DNA of 5,727 nt from Bacillota bacterium. GTDB taxonomy: Bacteria; Bacillota; Clostridia; Acetivibrionales; DSM-2933. Each line of letters opens with the position of its first letter. Positions within the stretch are counted from its first letter, which is position 1. Shown here piece after piece: positions 1-5,727 of this stretch. The stretch lies in NCBI GenBank assembly GCA_023441845.1, contig JAEZNF010000511.1, positions 1 to 5,727 on the forward strand. The letters are read 5' to 3'. The notes under the pieces were generated by a model that was given only the letters and a program-made list of their open reading frames with translations, was not told the origin of the DNA and ran no database searches. A program made the position numbers and the translations under genes.

Positions 1-759
1 TTTACGCTGTTGAACATATGGATGGTCTTGGTTACTGCCTTGCTGATCGTTGCATTGATATTTTGGATGCGCCGCTCAACGCAGCCTTTCCTGCAGTTAT
101 CCGTATTTGCAAACAAACAGTTCTCCATTCTTTTGGTTATTACGGTCATGTTCGGCATACTCAGCTTTGGAATACCGTTCATACTACCGCTTATGTTAGC
201 CGGTATACAAGCGGCTGACGCAGCGGCAATCAGCCTTGTAATACTCCCGGGAACGGTCATAGCGGCTCTGATGGCACGTACTGGCGGCCGGCTGATAGAC
301 AAAAAAGGCAATGCCTTTATGGTTAAGATATCGGTAATACCCATTATTATTTTGCTTTTTATTATGTCCTTGAGCTGCGGATGGTCTATGATCTTTACAG
401 CTTTACTAATGGTATTTTTCTGTATGGCTCAGGTGTTCCTGCAGACTGCTCTGAATAACAGTGTTTCCCATACACTTTCGCCAAAAGAAAGTGGCGTGGG
501 ATTTGGCATGTTCACTATGACTACCTATATATCCGGTGCATTGGCCAACGTGTTAGTCGGCTTGCTGGTAAATTTCTTTACTCTAACACCGGTGCAGCTT
601 AGCCCTGTGCTTATAAACAGCAACGCGTATGCATATAGCAATGCACTACTGGCCTTGATAGTGCCTGCAATATTGATTGGGCTGGTGTTTACCGTATTCT
701 TCAAAAAATCAAAGGCCGATAAAGTAGTAACGGAAGAGATCATAGATACCGAGACATAA
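1..759 (+). CDS. DHA2-type MFS drug efflux transporter, C-terminal part (5' end outside window)
   Basis: This is the C-terminal part of a proton-coupled multidrug or tetracycline-type exporter of the inner membrane. The frame is open from base 1, so the TTG at 10 and the later ATGs are not the real start and the gene begins before the window. The visible 252 residues contain about seven hydrophobic membrane segments. One loop reads LPGTVIAALMARTGGRLIDK, which has the layout of the TetL/TetK/QacA cytoplasmic motif (PGT, then GG-x-L-x-D-x-x-G). Further on, a SPKESGVGFGMF segment and a final SNALLALIVPAILIGLVF helix followed by basic KKSK also resemble the end of 14-TM TetL-like proteins. The stop codon at 757-759 is followed within about a dozen bases by the broken parA remnant on the opposite strand, with no terminator hairpin between them. 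The family call is firm; the substrate cannot be told from this part. Confidence 0.85.
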   Translation, partial: FTLLNIWMVLVTALLIVALIFWMRRSTQPFLQLSVFANKQFSILLVITVMFGILSFGIPFILPLMLAGIQAADAAAISLVILPGTVIAALMARTGGRLIDKKGNAFMVKISVIPIIILLFIMSLSCGWSMIFTALLMVFFCMAQVFLQTALNNSVSHTLSPKESGVGFGMFTMTTYISGALANVLVGLLVNFFTLTPVQLSPVLINSNAYAYSNALLALIVPAILIGLVFTVFFKKSKADKVVTEEIIDTET

Positions 760-769
760 GAAAAACACA

Positions 770-1112
770 TTGCGCAGTACGATCTCACGGCTCATGGTGT
801 TGACCAGCGATACCTCCATGGCAGAAAGCTCGATATTGGCTGGCATCAAGTCAACACCTTCAGCGTGATGCAGAACGCCTCTCCGGGCTCGATTAATTCA
901 TCCATGATGATTTTGGTCATGAGGGTAGCAAGGGTAACCGGCAGCTTGTCCGGCTCGTTCCAGCCGAGGCTGTCGGTAAGGTTGCCCTGCGCGTCTGCGT
1001 CTACCAGCAGCACCTTTTTACCTTGTCGTGCTAAGCCGATACCGAGGTTAACAGCAGTGGTTGTTTTGCCCACACCACCTTTTTGGTTCGCGAGGGCGAT
1101 GATTTTGGACAT
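770..1112 (-). pseudogene. parA/soj remnant: frameshifted and 3'-truncated ParA-family ATPase
   Basis: This is the N-terminal part of a ParA/Soj partition ATPase of the type found in integrative elements and plasmids of Bacillota. The intact protein would bind ATP and DNA to segregate or stabilise the element. The start ATG at 1112 has a perfect AAGGAGG site. Residues 11-18 are the deviant Walker A motif KGGVGKTT, and [10 protein letters not shown] (about 35-44) is Walker A'. After codon 79 (GEA) the frame goes wrong and stops at 846. If one base is restored at about 874-876, the reading continues with [20 protein letters not shown] and then a SLVNTMSREIVLR block, as in intact ParA. Recognisable homology ends at about 770, next to the MFS stop codon. 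About 114 codons therefore survive of a family length near 260-270, and Walker B and the C-terminal half are missing. The protein cannot be functional. The remnant is richer in GC than the genes to its right. Confidence 0.85.
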
Positions 1113-1367: not shown

Positions 1368-1991
1368 TTATATTTGAGATATATCTTCAAAAACAACAGG
1401 TATTTTTTCTTTGAATATAGATAAAAGTGGACATGCTATTTCCCTCATTTGAGGATGTGCTTTGGTGCTAGTTCTAAGTCTAAAAAAGTGCCGCCACTCT
1501 CTTAAATTCATAGTAACTACGATTTCTGTTTTTAAACAGTTAGGCAATAAACTTCTTGCTTGCTGAGGCTCAGTTCCTAGCGAGATTAACTTCATATAAT
1601 TTTCTTCTATGATCTGCATAGTTTCTTTCCAAATTTCATACTTTTGACTATCTTCGTTCCAAAAGAATGGTTTAATAAAGGTTAATGAATTACCGAACTT
1701 GTCTTTTGCGTAATTACAATATCGGGTACTTTCTTGGCTGTAGCTAGCGATTCTATGACGAACCAACTCATGTGAGACTCCTCGATCACAAATGAAACGT
1801 ACAGATATTTTCTCATGTTCTAATACTGACTCATGACCATTACGTATGATCATTGCAATAAACACTCTTGCAGAATCGCTGGTAATTCTATCTTCACTTC
1901 TATAGCATGTTCTTCCATAACGCTCGATATTTTTTATTAATTCTTCACCGTCAATATCTTCTATTTCAAAATTTGGTTCAACGATATACAT
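1368..1991 (-). CDS. thyX: Flavin-dependent thymidylate synthase ThyX
   Basis: This enzyme converts dUMP to dTMP in the cytoplasm, using methylene-tetrahydrofolate as carbon donor and reduced FAD as hydride carrier. It is unrelated in fold to ThyA. The 207-residue length is normal for the family. The ThyX signature RHR-x7-S is present at residues 78-88 (RHRIASYSQES), followed by TRY. An upstream HESVLEH block (53-59) is the usual conserved HxSxxEH segment. ARSLLP (145-150), NLREWRHFFRLR (162-173) and the A-x2-QMREI block (178-185) form the expected C-terminal nucleotide/FAD-binding part. The ATG at 1991 is preceded at seven bases by AGAAGG (1999-2004). It is the last gene of the operon, 23 bases after the HD-PRTase gene. 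All signature residues are intact, so activity is expected. Whether it is the host's main thymidylate synthase or accessory cargo cannot be decided here. Confidence 0.95.
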   Translation of the reverse strand: MYIVEPNFEIEDIDGEELIKNIERYGRTCYRSEDRITSDSARVFIAMIIRNGHESVLEHEKISVRFICDRGVSHELVRHRIASYSQESTRYCNYAKDKFGNSLTFIKPFFWNEDSQKYEIWKETMQIIEENYMKLISLGTEPQQARSLLPNCLKTEIVVTMNLREWRHFFRLRTSTKAHPQMREIACPLLSIFKEKIPVVFEDISQI

Positions 1992-1998
1992 ACTTACA

Positions 1999-2004
1999 CC
2001 TTCT
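1999..2004 (-). promoter_or_regulatory. Ribosome binding site of thyX
   Basis: AGAAGG on the minus strand lies seven bases before the thyX ATG, in the 23-base gap after the HD-PRTase stop. It is the best Shine-Dalgarno match in the operon, so ThyX may be translated well and independently of the gene before it. Confidence 0.6.
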
Positions 2005-2014
2005 CTAATATTTA

Positions 2015-3556
2015 TTAGCGCAACTTACATTGATCTTTTAAGCAAAGAGTTTCGCCTGCACAACTGTTGTCTAAAACAATAATTTTTTCAATCTCGTTAC
2101 CTGTTAATATCGCGATTGTTTTATCGTCAGAACAATCACGGCCGCATTGAAATATTGAATATACTACTACTCTATTTTTTCCTATTCCTAGTGTTTGCAA
2201 TTCTTTAAGAAAATTTAGAACTGTCTGACCTGTGCAAAACACATCAGTAATAATAATGAGCAGGTCATCATTAATACTAATTATTCTATCTGAATCAAAT
2301 TTTCCATTTTCATAAAAAGCGAAGCTAAATGCCTTATTTGTTCTATAACCAATTAAGCCAGATAACAGGGCACCATAAAAATTTATACCAACAATATAGG
2401 GGCGCTGAATTGAAGAGTATTTTTTATCCATTAGTAGTTCAATCATATCTTTTGAGATTATATCAGAAACATATTCAGAAAACAGCTTATCCTTTTTTGC
2501 AGGATCATTACAAAAAGTGGTCGTCAATAGTAACTTAATATCAATCCAATGTTTACGACCACCAAAGTCTGAGAGAAGGCCTGTATTTGCTTTAAAAATA
2601 CTAATAATCTCACGGCTGGCATCATCAATAACTTTTTTTTTGGTTAAAATTATTGACAAATAATTGTTTATACTATCTTCTGGATTGTTTGGATTATAGA
2701 TTTTAATATTTTCAATATTGAAATCATCTAATTTGTATTTTGCAGTACTAAAAATTAGCTTATTAACTTCTTTTAAAGAAGCATAAACTTTTTCGTACAC
2801 TTCTACAATTAAGCCAGCCTGATACTCTTTACTTGAATTTAATACTGGATCTTCAAAGCGCAATTTAAGAGCGAGCGTTTTTGAATCTAATAGATGGACT
2901 TCGCTAAAAAGCTGCAACTTATCAAAATGTGGTTTTGATGAACCATTAATAAATTTTTCATAATAATGAGTTCCTTTAAGCCTAGCATAGGTGATATCAA
3001 GTTCATCGGCAAACCTTAATAGTCCTGCAAGTTGAGTAACATTAATTTTTAAAAGGATGGGATCGTCTTTGTATTTGTTAATTATTTCTTTAAGAGTATG
3101 TTTTGTTTGCGATGTTTCTTTAATATCACTATGAGCATATATAATGTCAGCAATGTAATTTCCCCATGAATCAACAGGTATATTTTGACTTATTACAGAA
3201 CTCTTTACATGCATTTCTTCAAGAAATTTGTCTCTTGCAATTTTTGAATGACTTTTTCTGAAATCTTCAGAACTTTTTAAAGTTAAGGCGTAGTCGTGGA
3301 AAAGAACAGCCACCATTAGAATGAACAAACTTTCACCTTTCTTGTCGTGCTTATAAAATGACTCAGGCAAAATCGTATATAAATGGTTATATATATTAAT
3401 ACAATGGTGCTCATAATCATGAGGCGTAAAGGTTACATCACTAAAAAATGCCCCCTCATTAAGTGTCTTGTAATATTTTGTAACCATTTCGACCCAATTT
3501 GAGTATAATTTTTTATTTTTCTTTAGCTTTTGAGCAATGTCAATATCAATACACAT
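2015..3556 (-). CDS. HD-domain / phosphoribosyltransferase-domain fusion protein
   Basis: This 513-residue two-domain protein matches no characterised gene that I can name. Residues about 40-190 have an HD-superfamily metal-site pattern: H46 and H50 in FTPHDYEH, the HD pair H87-D88 in LFHDYA, H142 in YAHS, and D184 in RFADELD. A helical middle section (about 190-380) has no motif I know. Residues about 386-470 look like a type I PRTase: a strand-loop IVGINFYGALLSG, then IIITDVFCTGQTV (434-446), matching the PRPP-loop consensus hhhhDDhhxTGxT with the first acidic residue replaced by T437 and with D438, T442, G443 and T445 kept. The tail has five cysteines (471, 475, 499, 505, 510). HD domains usually hydrolyse phosphoesters of nucleotides or nucleic acids; the substrate here is unknown. 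The ATG at 3556 is 3 bases after the preceding stop, with GAGGA (3567-3571) inside the preceding gene, so the two are translationally coupled. Related HD and PRTase domains have been predicted in bacterial conflict systems, and I consider that role likely but unproven. Confidence 0.8.
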   Translation of the reverse strand: MCIDIDIAQKLKKNKKLYSNWVEMVTKYYKTLNEGAFFSDVTFTPHDYEHHCINIYNHLYTILPESFYKHDKKGESLFILMVAVLFHDYALTLKSSEDFRKSHSKIARDKFLEEMHVKSSVISQNIPVDSWGNYIADIIYAHSDIKETSQTKHTLKEIINKYKDDPILLKINVTQLAGLLRFADELDITYARLKGTHYYEKFINGSSKPHFDKLQLFSEVHLLDSKTLALKLRFEDPVLNSSKEYQAGLIVEVYEKVYASLKEVNKLIFSTAKYKLDDFNIENIKIYNPNNPEDSINNYLSIILTKKKVIDDASREIISIFKANTGLLSDFGGRKHWIDIKLLLTTTFCNDPAKKDKLFSEYVSDIISKDMIELLMDKKYSSIQRPYIVGINFYGALLSGLIGYRTNKAFSFAFYENGKFDSDRIISINDDLLIIITDVFCTGQTVLNFLKELQTLGIGKNRVVVYSIFQCGRDCSDDKTIAILTGNEIEKIIVLDNSCAGETLCLKDQCKLR

Positions 3557-3559
3557 AAA

Positions 3560-4615
3560 TCATAAGTCCTCTTCAAGATAAGCTATTTTATATTCAAAAC
3601 TTTCTGTTAAATGATTTACATTCCCAACTATTGTTTTTATTTGTGAATTTAATTCTCCACTTTTTTTCTTTCTAAAAACATCTTCAACTTTAGCTACCGC
3701 TAAACAGCCTAAGACTTCATTCTTATAATTTTGTAATAAGACTTTTGTTCTTATATATTCCGAACCTAAACAGAGGAAATCAGCAATACAAATATAGCAA
3801 GCATCGCGAATAGGTTCAAAACAAGTGTCTATATTTGTAAATGTATATTCTGGACCTAGTTTATTGATAAATGAAAACTGAATACCTAATTTATAAGCTA
3901 AGATGCCAGCAAGTATTGTGCCGTTAGTGCTAACTCCAAGTAAAATCACTTTTTTTTGTGTTAATGCTCTCATTTTATTAATTTCTCTAGCCATTTCTTC
4001 AATAACACAATTGAATATGTAGTTATCCGGGAATAAACGCTTAATATCAATATACATGTTGGCATAAACATTTGATGATGGTATATAAGTATTTGTTTTT
4101 TCGGTTTTGTTATGTAAGAAATCGCCGATTACGTTTTGGCGTATTTTTGTAGTTATTATTTCATATTTAAGATATTCATTATTTGTATTCAATCCGTGAT
4201 TAAGAGTATCATCAATTATTCTTTCAAAAAAATTTTGGTCGAAGCTGTCATTAAAAACAATAGATTTTTGCCCAAATAATAAACTATTATTAACTTGTAT
4301 ATTCCTTTCCTGAAAAATGGGGATTAATTCCATCAATTTGTCACATGAGATACCTAGAATGGCAACGTTAGACATTTTAACAATCTTATAAAAGTCTTCA
4401 GAAGGTGAGATTTTATGATCTGCTATATATATAATAAAAGATCCATCCGTTAATTGATTGCTATTTATAAAATTTAACATTATTCTAAAATCATTCTCTG
4501 AAATTTCTGTTAAGTTAACTTGTTTATTATTATCAATATAAATAAGATTAAGAGTGGTAGCATCAATATAATATCCGGTAAACAGACTTTTTGATTTATA
4601 AAAAATACTATTCAT
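3560..4615 (-). CDS. Protein with a degenerate phosphoribosyltransferase-like C-terminal domain
   Basis: A 351-residue protein of unknown function. I chose the ATG at 4615 because GAGAG (4621-4625) lies five bases before it. A TTG four codons upstream (4627) is also open but has no ribosome binding site. The N-terminal ~130 residues alternate hydrophobic strands and helices, including FIIYIAD (about 60-66) and NVAILGIS (about 83-90), and I cannot assign them. Residues about 222-310 resemble the PRTase domain of the next gene. The LLGVSTNGTILAG segment matches IVGINFYGALLSG there, and both later reach FSF with the same spacing. The position of the PRPP loop reads CIADFLCLGSE (about 276-286): one aspartate and the glycine remain, but both threonines of the TG-x-T loop are replaced (L283, E286). 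A PRPP-using reaction is therefore unlikely, and a sensor or scaffold role for the HD-PRTase partner is my inference. It starts 14 bases after the GHKL gene. Confidence 0.7.
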   Translation of the reverse strand: MNSIFYKSKSLFTGYYIDATTLNLIYIDNNKQVNLTEISENDFRIMLNFINSNQLTDGSFIIYIADHKISPSEDFYKIVKMSNVAILGISCDKLMELIPIFQERNIQVNNSLLFGQKSIVFNDSFDQNFFERIIDDTLNHGLNTNNEYLKYEIITTKIRQNVIGDFLHNKTEKTNTYIPSSNVYANMYIDIKRLFPDNYIFNCVIEEMAREINKMRALTQKKVILLGVSTNGTILAGILAYKLGIQFSFINKLGPEYTFTNIDTCFEPIRDACYICIADFLCLGSEYIRTKVLLQNYKNEVLGCLAVAKVEDVFRKKKSGELNSQIKTIVGNVNHLTESFEYKIAYLEEDL

Positions 4616-4629
4616 ACATACTCTCAATT

Positions 4630-5595
4630 TTAAAATTTAATATTAATATATATATTAACTCCACCTAAATGGTATTTTAATACTTCAGCTATAGGTATAA
4701 ATGACTTCCTATTCTTTTCTTTGATAGACTGTAGTAATTCTTGAATGCTGTCTTTTAGTTTTTCCTTATCATTTTCAATTGATATATACTTTATTACATA
4801 ATGGTTATCTAAAGATAACCTAACATTTTTATTTTTAATATTTATGGATGACCGGATGCTGTTTTTTACTGTATCTATACATATATCGTATAACCCTCTT
4901 AAACCAACTTTCCTGCGGAAAAGTATTGCTTCAAAAATTGAATAATAATTCCTTTTAATAATGGATAAAGGACTATGGAGATTTTCCAATCCAGCAAAGT
5001 ATTCCAATGGTACAGAATAGCAATCTTCAATCTTAGCTACTAAAGTATCGTAGAAACCGATTCCGGCGTCTGCTATTGAGATTTCCAAGGCGTTGTCTTC
5101 ATTTCCTGAATATGCCTGAAGACCAATTATGCAGATGCTATTCCCATGAAATAAACCGTTATGAAGTGTTTCAACAATAATATCTGCAAATTTTTTCAGT
5201 TTATCAAAATCAACAATATTCTTTTTATCAACTGCAATGTTAGATAATACTTTAAGATATTCTGTATAGTTTTCATTTCGAAATTGATAACCTGTAGTCT
5301 TGTATTTGTTAACAAAACTACTACCTCCATATATCTCATCAACGATACATTTTTTTAATTTATCAGATAAAGGAGTTATACTATTAAAAATAGCATTAAA
5401 CTTAAATATATATTCATTAAGAAGTACTGAAGGTTCATAAACATTTATTATTGTTGTAGCAGAGTTTTCTTCTTCTTTTGAAGCGGTACCAATAGCGTAA
5501 TCACCAAAATCTATATAATCTTTTGCTGATTTTATAAAATTGCTTTTATGAAGGAAGTTAGTGAAGTCAGTACCATAAGATAATTCGACTTTCAA
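4630..5595 (-). CDS. GHKL-fold (histidine kinase / Hsp90-like) ATP-binding protein
   Basis: A soluble 321-residue protein with a GHKL (Bergerat-fold) ATPase domain. The N box is VETLHNGLFHG (141-151), with E142, N146 and H150 in the E-x3-N-x3-H pattern. The G1 box is ISIADAGIGF (172-181), with the D176-x-G-x-G that contacts adenine. A glycine-rich VGLRGL (230-235) is a candidate G2/ATP-lid segment. The ~120 residues before the N box and the C-terminal tail are not recognised. There is no transmembrane segment, no phospho-acceptor H box and no receiver domain, so it is not an ordinary sensor kinase; an anti-sigma-like or Hsp90/MutL-like switch is more likely. The frame contains no methionine codon at all. 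The called start is TTG at 5595, with no ribosome binding site and in frame with the upstream stop at 5620-5622. An ATG at 5618, one base after that stop, would be the natural start but is out of frame by one base across a nine-A tract. The fold is well supported; the start is uncertain. Confidence 0.8.
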   Translation of the reverse strand: MKVELSYGTDFTNFLHKSNFIKSAKDYIDFGDYAIGTASKEEENSATTIINVYEPSVLLNEYIFKFNAIFNSITPLSDKLKKCIVDEIYGGSSFVNKYKTTGYQFRNENYTEYLKVLSNIAVDKKNIVDFDKLKKFADIIVETLHNGLFHGNSICIIGLQAYSGNEDNALEISIADAGIGFYDTLVAKIEDCYSVPLEYFAGLENLHSPLSIIKRNYYSIFEAILFRRKVGLRGLYDICIDTVKNSIRSSINIKNKNVRLSLDNHYVIKYISIENDKEKLKDSIQELLQSIKEKNRKSFIPIAEVLKYHLGGVNIYINIKF

Positions 5596-5605
5596 ATGGA
5601 CCGAG

Positions 5606-5614
5606 TTTTTTTTT
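5606..5614 (-). promoter_or_regulatory. Nine-A tract at the start of the GHKL gene (possible slippage site)
   Basis: On the minus strand the ATG at 5618 is followed by C and nine A residues. As written, that ATG gives only eight codons (MQKKTRSI) before TGA. If the tract had ten A residues, the same ATG would read MQKKNSVHLKVELSYG and continue through the whole GHKL frame. Runs of nine or more A are classic sites of RNA polymerase slippage and also of sequencing or assembly indels. Which applies cannot be decided from one sequence. Confidence 0.5.
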
Positions 5615-5619
5615 GCATC

Positions 5620-5727
5620 TTATCCCAAAGAAATTAATTGCACCAATACATTAATATTTATTCTTGTAACTTGACTTAAATCAAGGATAAAATAGCATTC
5701 TATTTTCTTCGCTTTAATATCAATATA
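5620..5727 (-). CDS. C-terminal end of a possible STAS-like (anti-sigma antagonist-type) protein, 5' part outside window
   Basis: The last 35 codons of an open frame enter from the right edge and stop with TAA at 5622-5620. The visible end contains CYFILDLSQVTRINVNVLV-like sequence (the exact order around residues 20-28 is VTRININVLV): a hydrophobic strand ending in a conserved-looking D-L-S, followed by an amphipathic helix and a short LISLG end. This strand-DLS-helix order resembles the middle of STAS domains of SpoIIAA/RsbV type, and such proteins commonly pair with GHKL ATPases like the one encoded next. One base separates the stop from the out-of-frame ATG at 5618, as expected for tightly coupled genes. 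The fragment is short, so the STAS assignment is tentative, but the coding frame itself fits the operon well. Confidence 0.45.
   Translation of the reverse strand, partial: YIDIKAKKIECYFILDLSQVTRININVLVQLISLG

What the first reader, a model, noticed from the sequence alone, without database searches (positions are those of the whole stretch)
1368..5727. Unrecognised operon: STAS-like + GHKL ATPase + pseudo-PRTase + HD-PRTase fusion + ThyX
Five tightly spaced genes on one strand combine a possible partner-switch pair (STAS-like/GHKL), two phosphoribosyltransferase-type domains, an HD phosphohydrolase-type domain and a dTMP-making enzyme. Seen directly: spacing of 3 to about 24 bases, the GHKL N and G1 boxes, the HD metal-site residues, the PRPP loop and the ThyX signature. 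Known: GHKL proteins of this kind often act as switches, HD domains hydrolyse nucleotides, and HD and PRTase domains have been predicted in bacterial conflict systems. Inferred: a regulated system that senses or alters nucleotide pools, possibly anti-phage defence, with ThyX restoring or redirecting thymidylate. The AT-rich island next to a broken mobile-element gene fits the accessory cargo of a defence hotspot.
Basis: partly seen in the sequence, partly recalled or inferred. Interest (0 to 1): 0.8.

Follow-up and report, generated by a model that had tools for sequence, protein, structure and literature searches.

The report
Portable nucleotide-switch operon with thymidylate synthase
A set of neighbouring genes recurs in the same order in distantly related bacteria, joining a predicted ATPase, a protein resembling a pyrimidine-building enzyme, a predicted nucleotide-cutting enzyme and usually the DNA-building-block enzyme ThyX, and it is likely a virus-defence system that would starve an invader of nucleotides while ThyX would help the host recover.

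Summary
Thirteen other distinct loci, Bacillota and one Bacteroidales, carry the same genes on one strand: GHKL ATPase, orotate-PRTase(OPRT)-like protein, HD-OPRT fusion, ThyX. ThyX follows in 10 of 12 loci where it could be seen; the other proteins share only 16-30% identity with the window, so chance neighbourhood is excluded. Corrections: (1) the "STAS-like" and "GHKL" genes are one gene in all 12 relatives that show it; in the window an in-frame TAA splits it. (2) The "pseudo-PRTase" has the invariant PRPP-type loop (14 of 14 rows); the HD fusion's loop decays (Gly in 7 of 14). (3) Both PRTase domains match OPRT-type structures. New: one Bacteroidota genome keeps ATPase and OPRT protein but has a metallophosphoesterase-like domain instead of HD on the same tail, near Cas6/Cas7 genes. 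Other neighbours include a Tn7-like element, a Gabija pair and integrases. Best reading: a mobile defence system with a fixed switch, exchangeable phosphoesterase effector and ThyX as accessory. Defence and nucleotide depletion are inferred, not shown. No PADLOC or NCBIfam family names it.

The parts
5623..5727 (-). Predicted STAS-like first part of the STAS-GHKL protein (runs off the window), ended by an in-frame TAA at 5620-5622
   Evidence: Piece matches profile positions 31-58 of 12 uninterrupted relatives; STAS assignment weak: prestin STAS E 0.16, DUF4325 E 0.2
4630..5595 (-). GHKL-ATPase part of the STAS-GHKL protein (N box, G1 box D-x-G-x-G); its true N-terminus lies upstream
   Evidence: N146, H150, D176, G178, G180 invariant in 13 rows (shown); three of the four relatives scanned match HATPase models weakly, E 0.008-0.1, and L014 matches none
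3560..4627 (-).
2015..3556 (-). HD-CE phosphohydrolase-type domain fused to an OPRT/APRT-like C-domain (predicted effector)
1368..1991 (-). ThyX, FAD-dependent thymidylate synthase, short form
   Evidence: Pfam Thy1 1e-52, TIGR02170 over its cut-off; RHR(x)7S in 11 of 11 operon copies

Best explanation
This window carries one copy of a conserved four-gene cassette (a predicted GHKL ATPase, a protein with an orotate-phosphoribosyltransferase-like domain, an HD-type domain fused to a second such domain, and ThyX) that is likely a mobile anti-phage system in which the first two proteins would act as a switch that releases the HD hydrolase to destroy nucleotides, while ThyX is predicted to restore the host's thymidylate. 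Shown: gene order, domain make-up, invariant HD residues and GHKL boxes, the invariant PRPP-type loop of the middle protein, the conserved ThyX signature, and, in one relative, a metallophosphoesterase-like domain in place of HD on the same C-terminal domain. Inferred: (1) the ATPase (with a predicted STAS domain) senses or transduces the infection signal; (2) the OPRT-like protein pairs with the OPRT-like tail of the effector, as OPRTs dimerise (recalled), and reads PRPP or a pyrimidine nucleotide, mostly without catalysis; (3) release of the pair activates the phosphoesterase against nucleotides; (4) ThyX, not essential to the switch, keeps or rebuilds dTMP independently of the host's own synthase. 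The window's own copy may be inactive, because its first gene is interrupted.
For: Same order and strand in 13 other loci, gene spacing mostly from overlaps to about 30 bases (47 and 84 before ThyX in L012 and L003). HD-CE over its cut-off in the window protein, L005 and L010; HD-CE heads an archaeal NB-ARC/AAA-TPR protein (L015). Front-end swap with ATPase and OPRT protein kept: L078, with Cas6 and Cas7/Csh2 genes about 2-5 kb downstream. GajA/GajB about 3 kb upstream of the operon in L012 (E 3e-162, 3e-94); TniB, TniQ, TnsE and a PADLOC candidate gene beside L006; integrase genes at L004, L005, L010, L011 and a Mob_Pre gene at L010; L001 (the same operon as L005) and L002 lie in IMG/VR contigs. 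Patchy: strong pPRT-profile hits in 1 of 397, 1 of 73, 2 of 296 and 2 of 229 sampled genomes, of which only G790 was not already a known carrier. 8 of 9 genomes with the operon ThyX hold another thymidylate synthase, and the two absences (L007, L009) are nested among ThyX-bearing copies: ThyX looks like an accessory. A related ThyX starts a second conflict-type operon with PRTase-CE, ORC-CDC6-like and CARF genes. A thymidylate synthase and a metallophosphatase are among domains first validated in E. coli anti-phage systems (PMC13092281, section 5 read), in other systems that I did not compare by sequence.
Against: No experiment. The flanking genes scanned were picked by eye, without a random-locus control. 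L007 and L009 sit among what look like surface-polysaccharide genes (by eye). The operon ThyX is not shown to be one clade (held-together tree lnL 26 lower, AU p 0.07), near relatives lie among ordinary-looking genes (by eye) and ThyX is common in phages (1446 of 50,697 records match), so it may be recruited repeatedly. The substrate of HD-CE is unknown. STAS assignments are weak. No core homologue in the phage and plasmid collections. The front-end swap rests on one genome and a phosphoesterase match of E 0.0014 plus motifs read by eye.
Confidence: 0.45

Rival explanations
1. A regulated backup thymidylate/pyrimidine supply carried on mobile DNA: the OPRT-like proteins would sense PRPP or pyrimidines, HD and GHKL would tune the pool, and ThyX would be the payload that keeps DNA synthesis going when folate or the host synthase is blocked.
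For: The enzyme parts with a known chemistry point to pyrimidines (OPRT-type domains; ThyX); ThyX is by far the most conserved part (59-72% against 16-30% for the other genes of the 13 loci).
Against: ThyX is missing in 2 of 12 evaluable loci (L007, L009) and no ThyX match was found in the L078 stretch, while the switch stays; 8 of 9 hosts with the operon ThyX have another synthase.
Confidence: 0.2
2. A biosynthetic operon for a modified nucleotide: the PRTase domains would build, ThyX would methylate and HD would dephosphorylate a nucleoside-like metabolite or signal, with the GHKL protein as regulator.
For: Domain logic; a ThyX homologue in polyoxin biosynthesis is recalled to methylate UMP (recalled, no call).
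Against: By eye, no further gene is conserved beside the four across the loci, apart from a DUF2992 gene in three close relatives; the fusion's PRPP loop lacks its Gly in half the rows; the front domain differs in L078 and ThyX is missing in L007 and L009.
Confidence: 0.15
3. A toxin-antitoxin-like stabilisation module of mobile elements: HD or metallophosphoesterase as toxin, the ATPase/OPRT pair as restraint, ThyX as partial antidote.
For: Mobile context, tight coupling, two decayed copies: window STAS-GHKL and L006 fusion gene in pieces.
Against: Three to four conserved genes are more than addiction modules need; in both decayed copies the remaining genes are still open.
Confidence: 0.12

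Closest known systems
HD-CE domain proteins (Pfam PF24391)
   Same: HD-CE domain over the Pfam cut-off in the window protein, L005 and L010
   Different: Here fused to an OPRT-like tail and encoded with an OPRT-like partner, a GHKL protein and ThyX; in L015 HD-CE is fused to an NB-ARC/TPR protein instead
PRTase-CE / retron type III-A PRTase modules (Pfam PF24390, PADLOC PRTase_III-A)
   Same: PRTase-fold proteins in conflict operons; one such operon (L025) starts with a close ThyX relative
   Different: No gene beside the four in the window matches a reverse transcriptase or ORC-CDC6 model; PRTase-CE was not among the window matches; profile comparison with the L025 PRTase-CE is marginal for the middle protein (E 8e-4, probability 24%) and absent for the fusion
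Orotate phosphoribosyltransferase / PurR-type regulatory PRTases
   Same: OPRT fold in the middle protein; the fusion's tail aligns with APRT, OPRT and the regulator PurR
   Different: First acid of the PRPP loop lost in 13 of 14 rows of the middle protein and 14 of 14 of the fusion; the OPRT catalytic loop is not recognisable by eye in the window copy; fused to other domains
Nucleotide-depleting defence (HD dGTPases, dCTP deaminases; recalled)
   Same: HD phosphohydrolase as predicted effector against nucleotides
   Different: No match of the window proteins to PADLOC models; here predicted control by a GHKL/OPRT switch and an adjoining thymidylate synthase
RsbW/SpoIIAB partner switching
   Same: GHKL fold and a possible STAS domain
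   Different: One protein in the relatives; majority consensus V-E-P-x-V-I-P-N where SpoIIAA has its phosphorylatable Ser region (SpoIIAA motif recalled)

Membership tests
ThyX (TIGR02170 / PF02511) | Score over the curated cut-off | tested here: met
   138.6 bits against 87.9; 179 against 24.8
ThyX (TIGR02170 / PF02511) | RHR(x)7S motif | tested here: met
   11 of 11 operon copies
HD-CE (PF24391) | Score over the gathering cut-off | tested here: met
   45.6 bits against 27 for the window; also L005, L010
HD-CE (PF24391) | Conserved HD metal-site-type residues | tested here: met
   H87/D88 and H46, H51, H103, H142, D184 invariant in 14 rows; that these bind metal is recalled from HD domains
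HD-CE (PF24391) | Acts as effector in a conflict system | not testable with these tools
   Architecture and context only
Orotate phosphoribosyltransferase | OPRT fold | tested here: met
Orotate phosphoribosyltransferase | PRPP loop with both acidic residues | tested here: not met
   Middle protein keeps only the second acid (D283) in 13 of 14 rows (L014 has E-D); fusion keeps D438 in 12 of 14 and has no first acid in any row
Two-protein partner-switch (RsbW/SpoIIAB type) | Separate STAS and GHKL proteins | tested here: not met
   One protein in 12 of 12 relatives with the gene visible
Two-protein partner-switch (RsbW/SpoIIAB type) | Recognisable STAS domain | tested here: inconclusive
   Best E 0.16 and 0.2
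Retron type III-A | PRTase_III-A / PRTase-CE protein | tested here: not met
   No PADLOC hit at E up to 1 for the window proteins, none at 0.01 for the L005 and L010 fusions; PF24390 not among window matches
Any system in PADLOC-DB 2.0.0 | Hit of a component model | tested here: not met
   0 hits for the four window proteins; of four operon proteins of relatives scanned, three none and one a marginal SduA hit, E 0.004

The most novel reading that the evidence does not exclude
An undescribed class of bacterial immune system: a fixed switch made of a GHKL ATPase and an OPRT-derived nucleotide sensor, coupled through a paired OPRT-like tail to interchangeable phosphoesterase effectors (HD hydrolase or metallophosphoesterase), and carrying its own thymidylate synthase so that the host survives the nucleotide starvation it inflicts on the phage.
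Probability: 0.38. Interest if true: 0.85.

Novelty: new variant of a known kind. Interest (0 to 1): 0.74.

Why it matters
If right, enzymes of basic pyrimidine metabolism have been turned into a sensor and a coupling part of immunity, and a thymidylate synthase serves as a recovery gene. The modular effector gives a direct test: kill or exchange the HD or phosphoesterase domain and see whether protection follows. It also suggests that other 'housekeeping' ThyX genes next to PRTase conflict genes (L025) deserve a second look.

Full report
WHAT IS IN THE WINDOW. On the minus strand lie ThyX (1368-1991), an HD-PRTase fusion (2015-3556), a PRTase-like protein (3560-4627) and a GHKL ORF (4630-5595), preceded by a short STAS-like stretch that runs off the end. 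Pfam gives Thy1 1e-52 and HD-CE 9e-12; PRTase models are weak and below their cut-offs. PADLOC has no model for any of the four. No whole genome is held for the window. The STAS-like stretch and the GHKL ORF share one frame with a TAA at 5620-5622; a profile built only from 12 relatives matches the first piece at positions 31-58 and the second at 129-306, in order. In all 12 relatives where the gene is visible it is one protein. So there are four genes, and the first is interrupted here.

IT RECURS. Proteins like the fusion are rare: 6 matches, the window's own included, in a search of 5.8 billion clustered proteins that scored only the 7996 best candidates, and 8 with a 14-row profile under the same limit. 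One pattern-based scan of 84,980 species genomes gave 13 loci and the viral set 2. L001 repeats L005 (same ORF lengths and scores), and L015 holds only an HD-CE domain in another protein; that leaves 13 distinct loci with the operon (L002-L014). The pPRT and fusion genes are side by side in all 13 (pPRT cut by the contig end in L003, fusion cut in L013, fusion in pieces in L006); the ATPase precedes them in 12 (L003 starts inside pPRT). ThyX follows in 10 of 12 (L002, L003, L004, L005, L006, L008, L010, L011, L012, L014); L007 and L009 lack it, and L013 ends inside the fusion. Record titles: Lachnospiraceae and allies (L003, L007, L010-L013), Cellulosilyticum (L009), Oscillibacter (L008), Desulfosporosinus (L005), Thermincola (L004), another Bacillota (L006), Bacteroidales (L014); L002 is a viral contig. 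Identity of the loci to the window is 21-30% for the fusion (L006 and L013 not aligned), 16-24% for pPRT (L003 not aligned), 16-21% for the ATPase and 59-72% for ThyX; the single proteins P0002 and P0008 reach 39% and 38%. A core tree nests L007 beside L012 and L009 beside L010/L011/L013, so the two absences look like losses. In sampled groups the pPRT profile has strong hits in 1 of 397, 1 of 73, 2 of 296 and 2 of 229 genomes (the centre genome, a known carrier, is included in each; cut-off 1e-3 with 5 weak hits set aside, 1e-10 in the others). Only G790 was new.

THE FRONT-END SWAP. A Bacteroidota genome (G790, unnamed) carries the ATPase and the OPRT-like protein, overlapping, followed by a 561-aa protein whose C-terminal part matches the fusion profile at positions 334-521 (E 1e-22) while its N-terminal part, searched apart, does not match it (the whole-protein search also drew in a short stretch of the linker region). 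That N-terminal part resembles the phosphodiesterase Rv0805 (E 0.0014) and shows metallophosphoesterase-type motifs (D-L-H, G-D, G-N-H-D, G-D-C-H; read by eye, motif names recalled). In this copy the middle protein reads D-F-C-F-A-G-T-E, keeping D, F, G and E. No ThyX profile match was found among the ORFs of that 17-kb stretch. Cas6 (E 1.3e-12) and Cas7/Csh2 (E 1e-40) genes follow about 2-5 kb downstream. One case, but it suggests that the tail is a coupling part and that the front end can be exchanged.

CONTEXT. Known or candidate defence genes: GajA/GajB by L012, a PADLOC candidate (PDC-S15) with TniB/TniQ/TnsE by L006; an OLD-like ATPase gene by L005 has only generic hits. Mobile genes: integrases at L004, L005, L010, L011, relaxase-type Mob_Pre at L010 (and weakly L011), a peptidoglycan-binding/SH3 protein on viral contig L002. 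These neighbours were picked by eye from the gene lists, and no random-locus control was run. L007 and L009 stand among what look like surface-polysaccharide genes (by eye). In the genome of L011 a close ThyX heads another operon with an N6 methylase, PRTase-CE (8e-39), ORC-CDC6-like (1e-81) and CARF proteins; of 7 PRTase-CE places below E 1e-17 in 299 genomes only this one lies by a ThyX. Twelve further Lachnospiraceae genomes carry strong ThyX matches (L044-L055); the eight whose neighbours I listed show ordinary-looking genes (by eye).

THYX AS ACCESSORY. Of 9 host genomes with the operon ThyX, 5 have ThyA (G001, G006, G008, G010, G012), 3 have a further ThyX (G002, G003, G009) and 1 has neither (G004, a MAG). 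So in most hosts ThyX is not there because the activity is lacking. The operon copies lie within the diversity of clostridial short ThyX proteins, without resolved branching. A thymidylate synthase was among domains first validated in E. coli defence systems (PMC13092281, section 5); that system was not compared by sequence.

MECHANISM. I commit to a defence reading: ATPase plus OPRT-like sensor hold or release a phosphoesterase effector through paired OPRT-like domains; the effector consumes nucleotides; ThyX restores thymidylate. Shown are anatomy, conservation, recurrence and the one swap; sensing, pairing, substrate, protection and the role of ThyX are inferred. Rivals are a backup thymidylate operon, a nucleoside-like metabolite pathway and an addiction module.

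NOVELTY. Domain families (HD-CE, ThyX, OPRT, GHKL) are known; the combination, the OPRT-based coupling and the front-end exchange carry no name in the libraries scanned and appear in no paper my searches returned. PHROG 3364, of unknown function, matches the ATPase of L005 (E 2.5e-12) and, more weakly, those of L002 and the window.

Noticed in passing
L025:7544-13551 (genome of L011): A close ThyX relative heads a different operon: N6 methylase, PRTase-CE, ORC-CDC6-like ATPase, CARF protein.
   Followed up: partly
L010:7401-7521, L011:7354-7474, L013:210-330: An azaaromatic (yjdF) riboswitch lies upstream of a gene that directly precedes the operon in these three related loci; that gene is DUF2992 in L010, the only one tested, and looks alike in the other two.
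   Followed up: no
L015:9797-13396: Methanosarcinales protein with HD-CE at the N-terminus followed by NB-ARC/AAA-like and TPR regions, an immune-receptor-like architecture.
   Followed up: no
window 846-1112 (-): ParA fragment, 88 aa, matching only the first 69 of 177 AAA_31 positions; broken.
   Followed up: no
window 1-759 (+): MFS transporter cut by the window start; over the Pfam MFS_1 cut-off, but far below every NCBIfam efflux or resistance cut-off it resembles.
   Followed up: no
L006:9929-11588: The HD-PRTase gene is in three pieces in the Tn7-like locus, a second decayed copy of a core gene.
   Followed up: no
L007:11780-12619: A 279-aa gene without Pfam or PADLOC match takes the place of ThyX.
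   Followed up: partly
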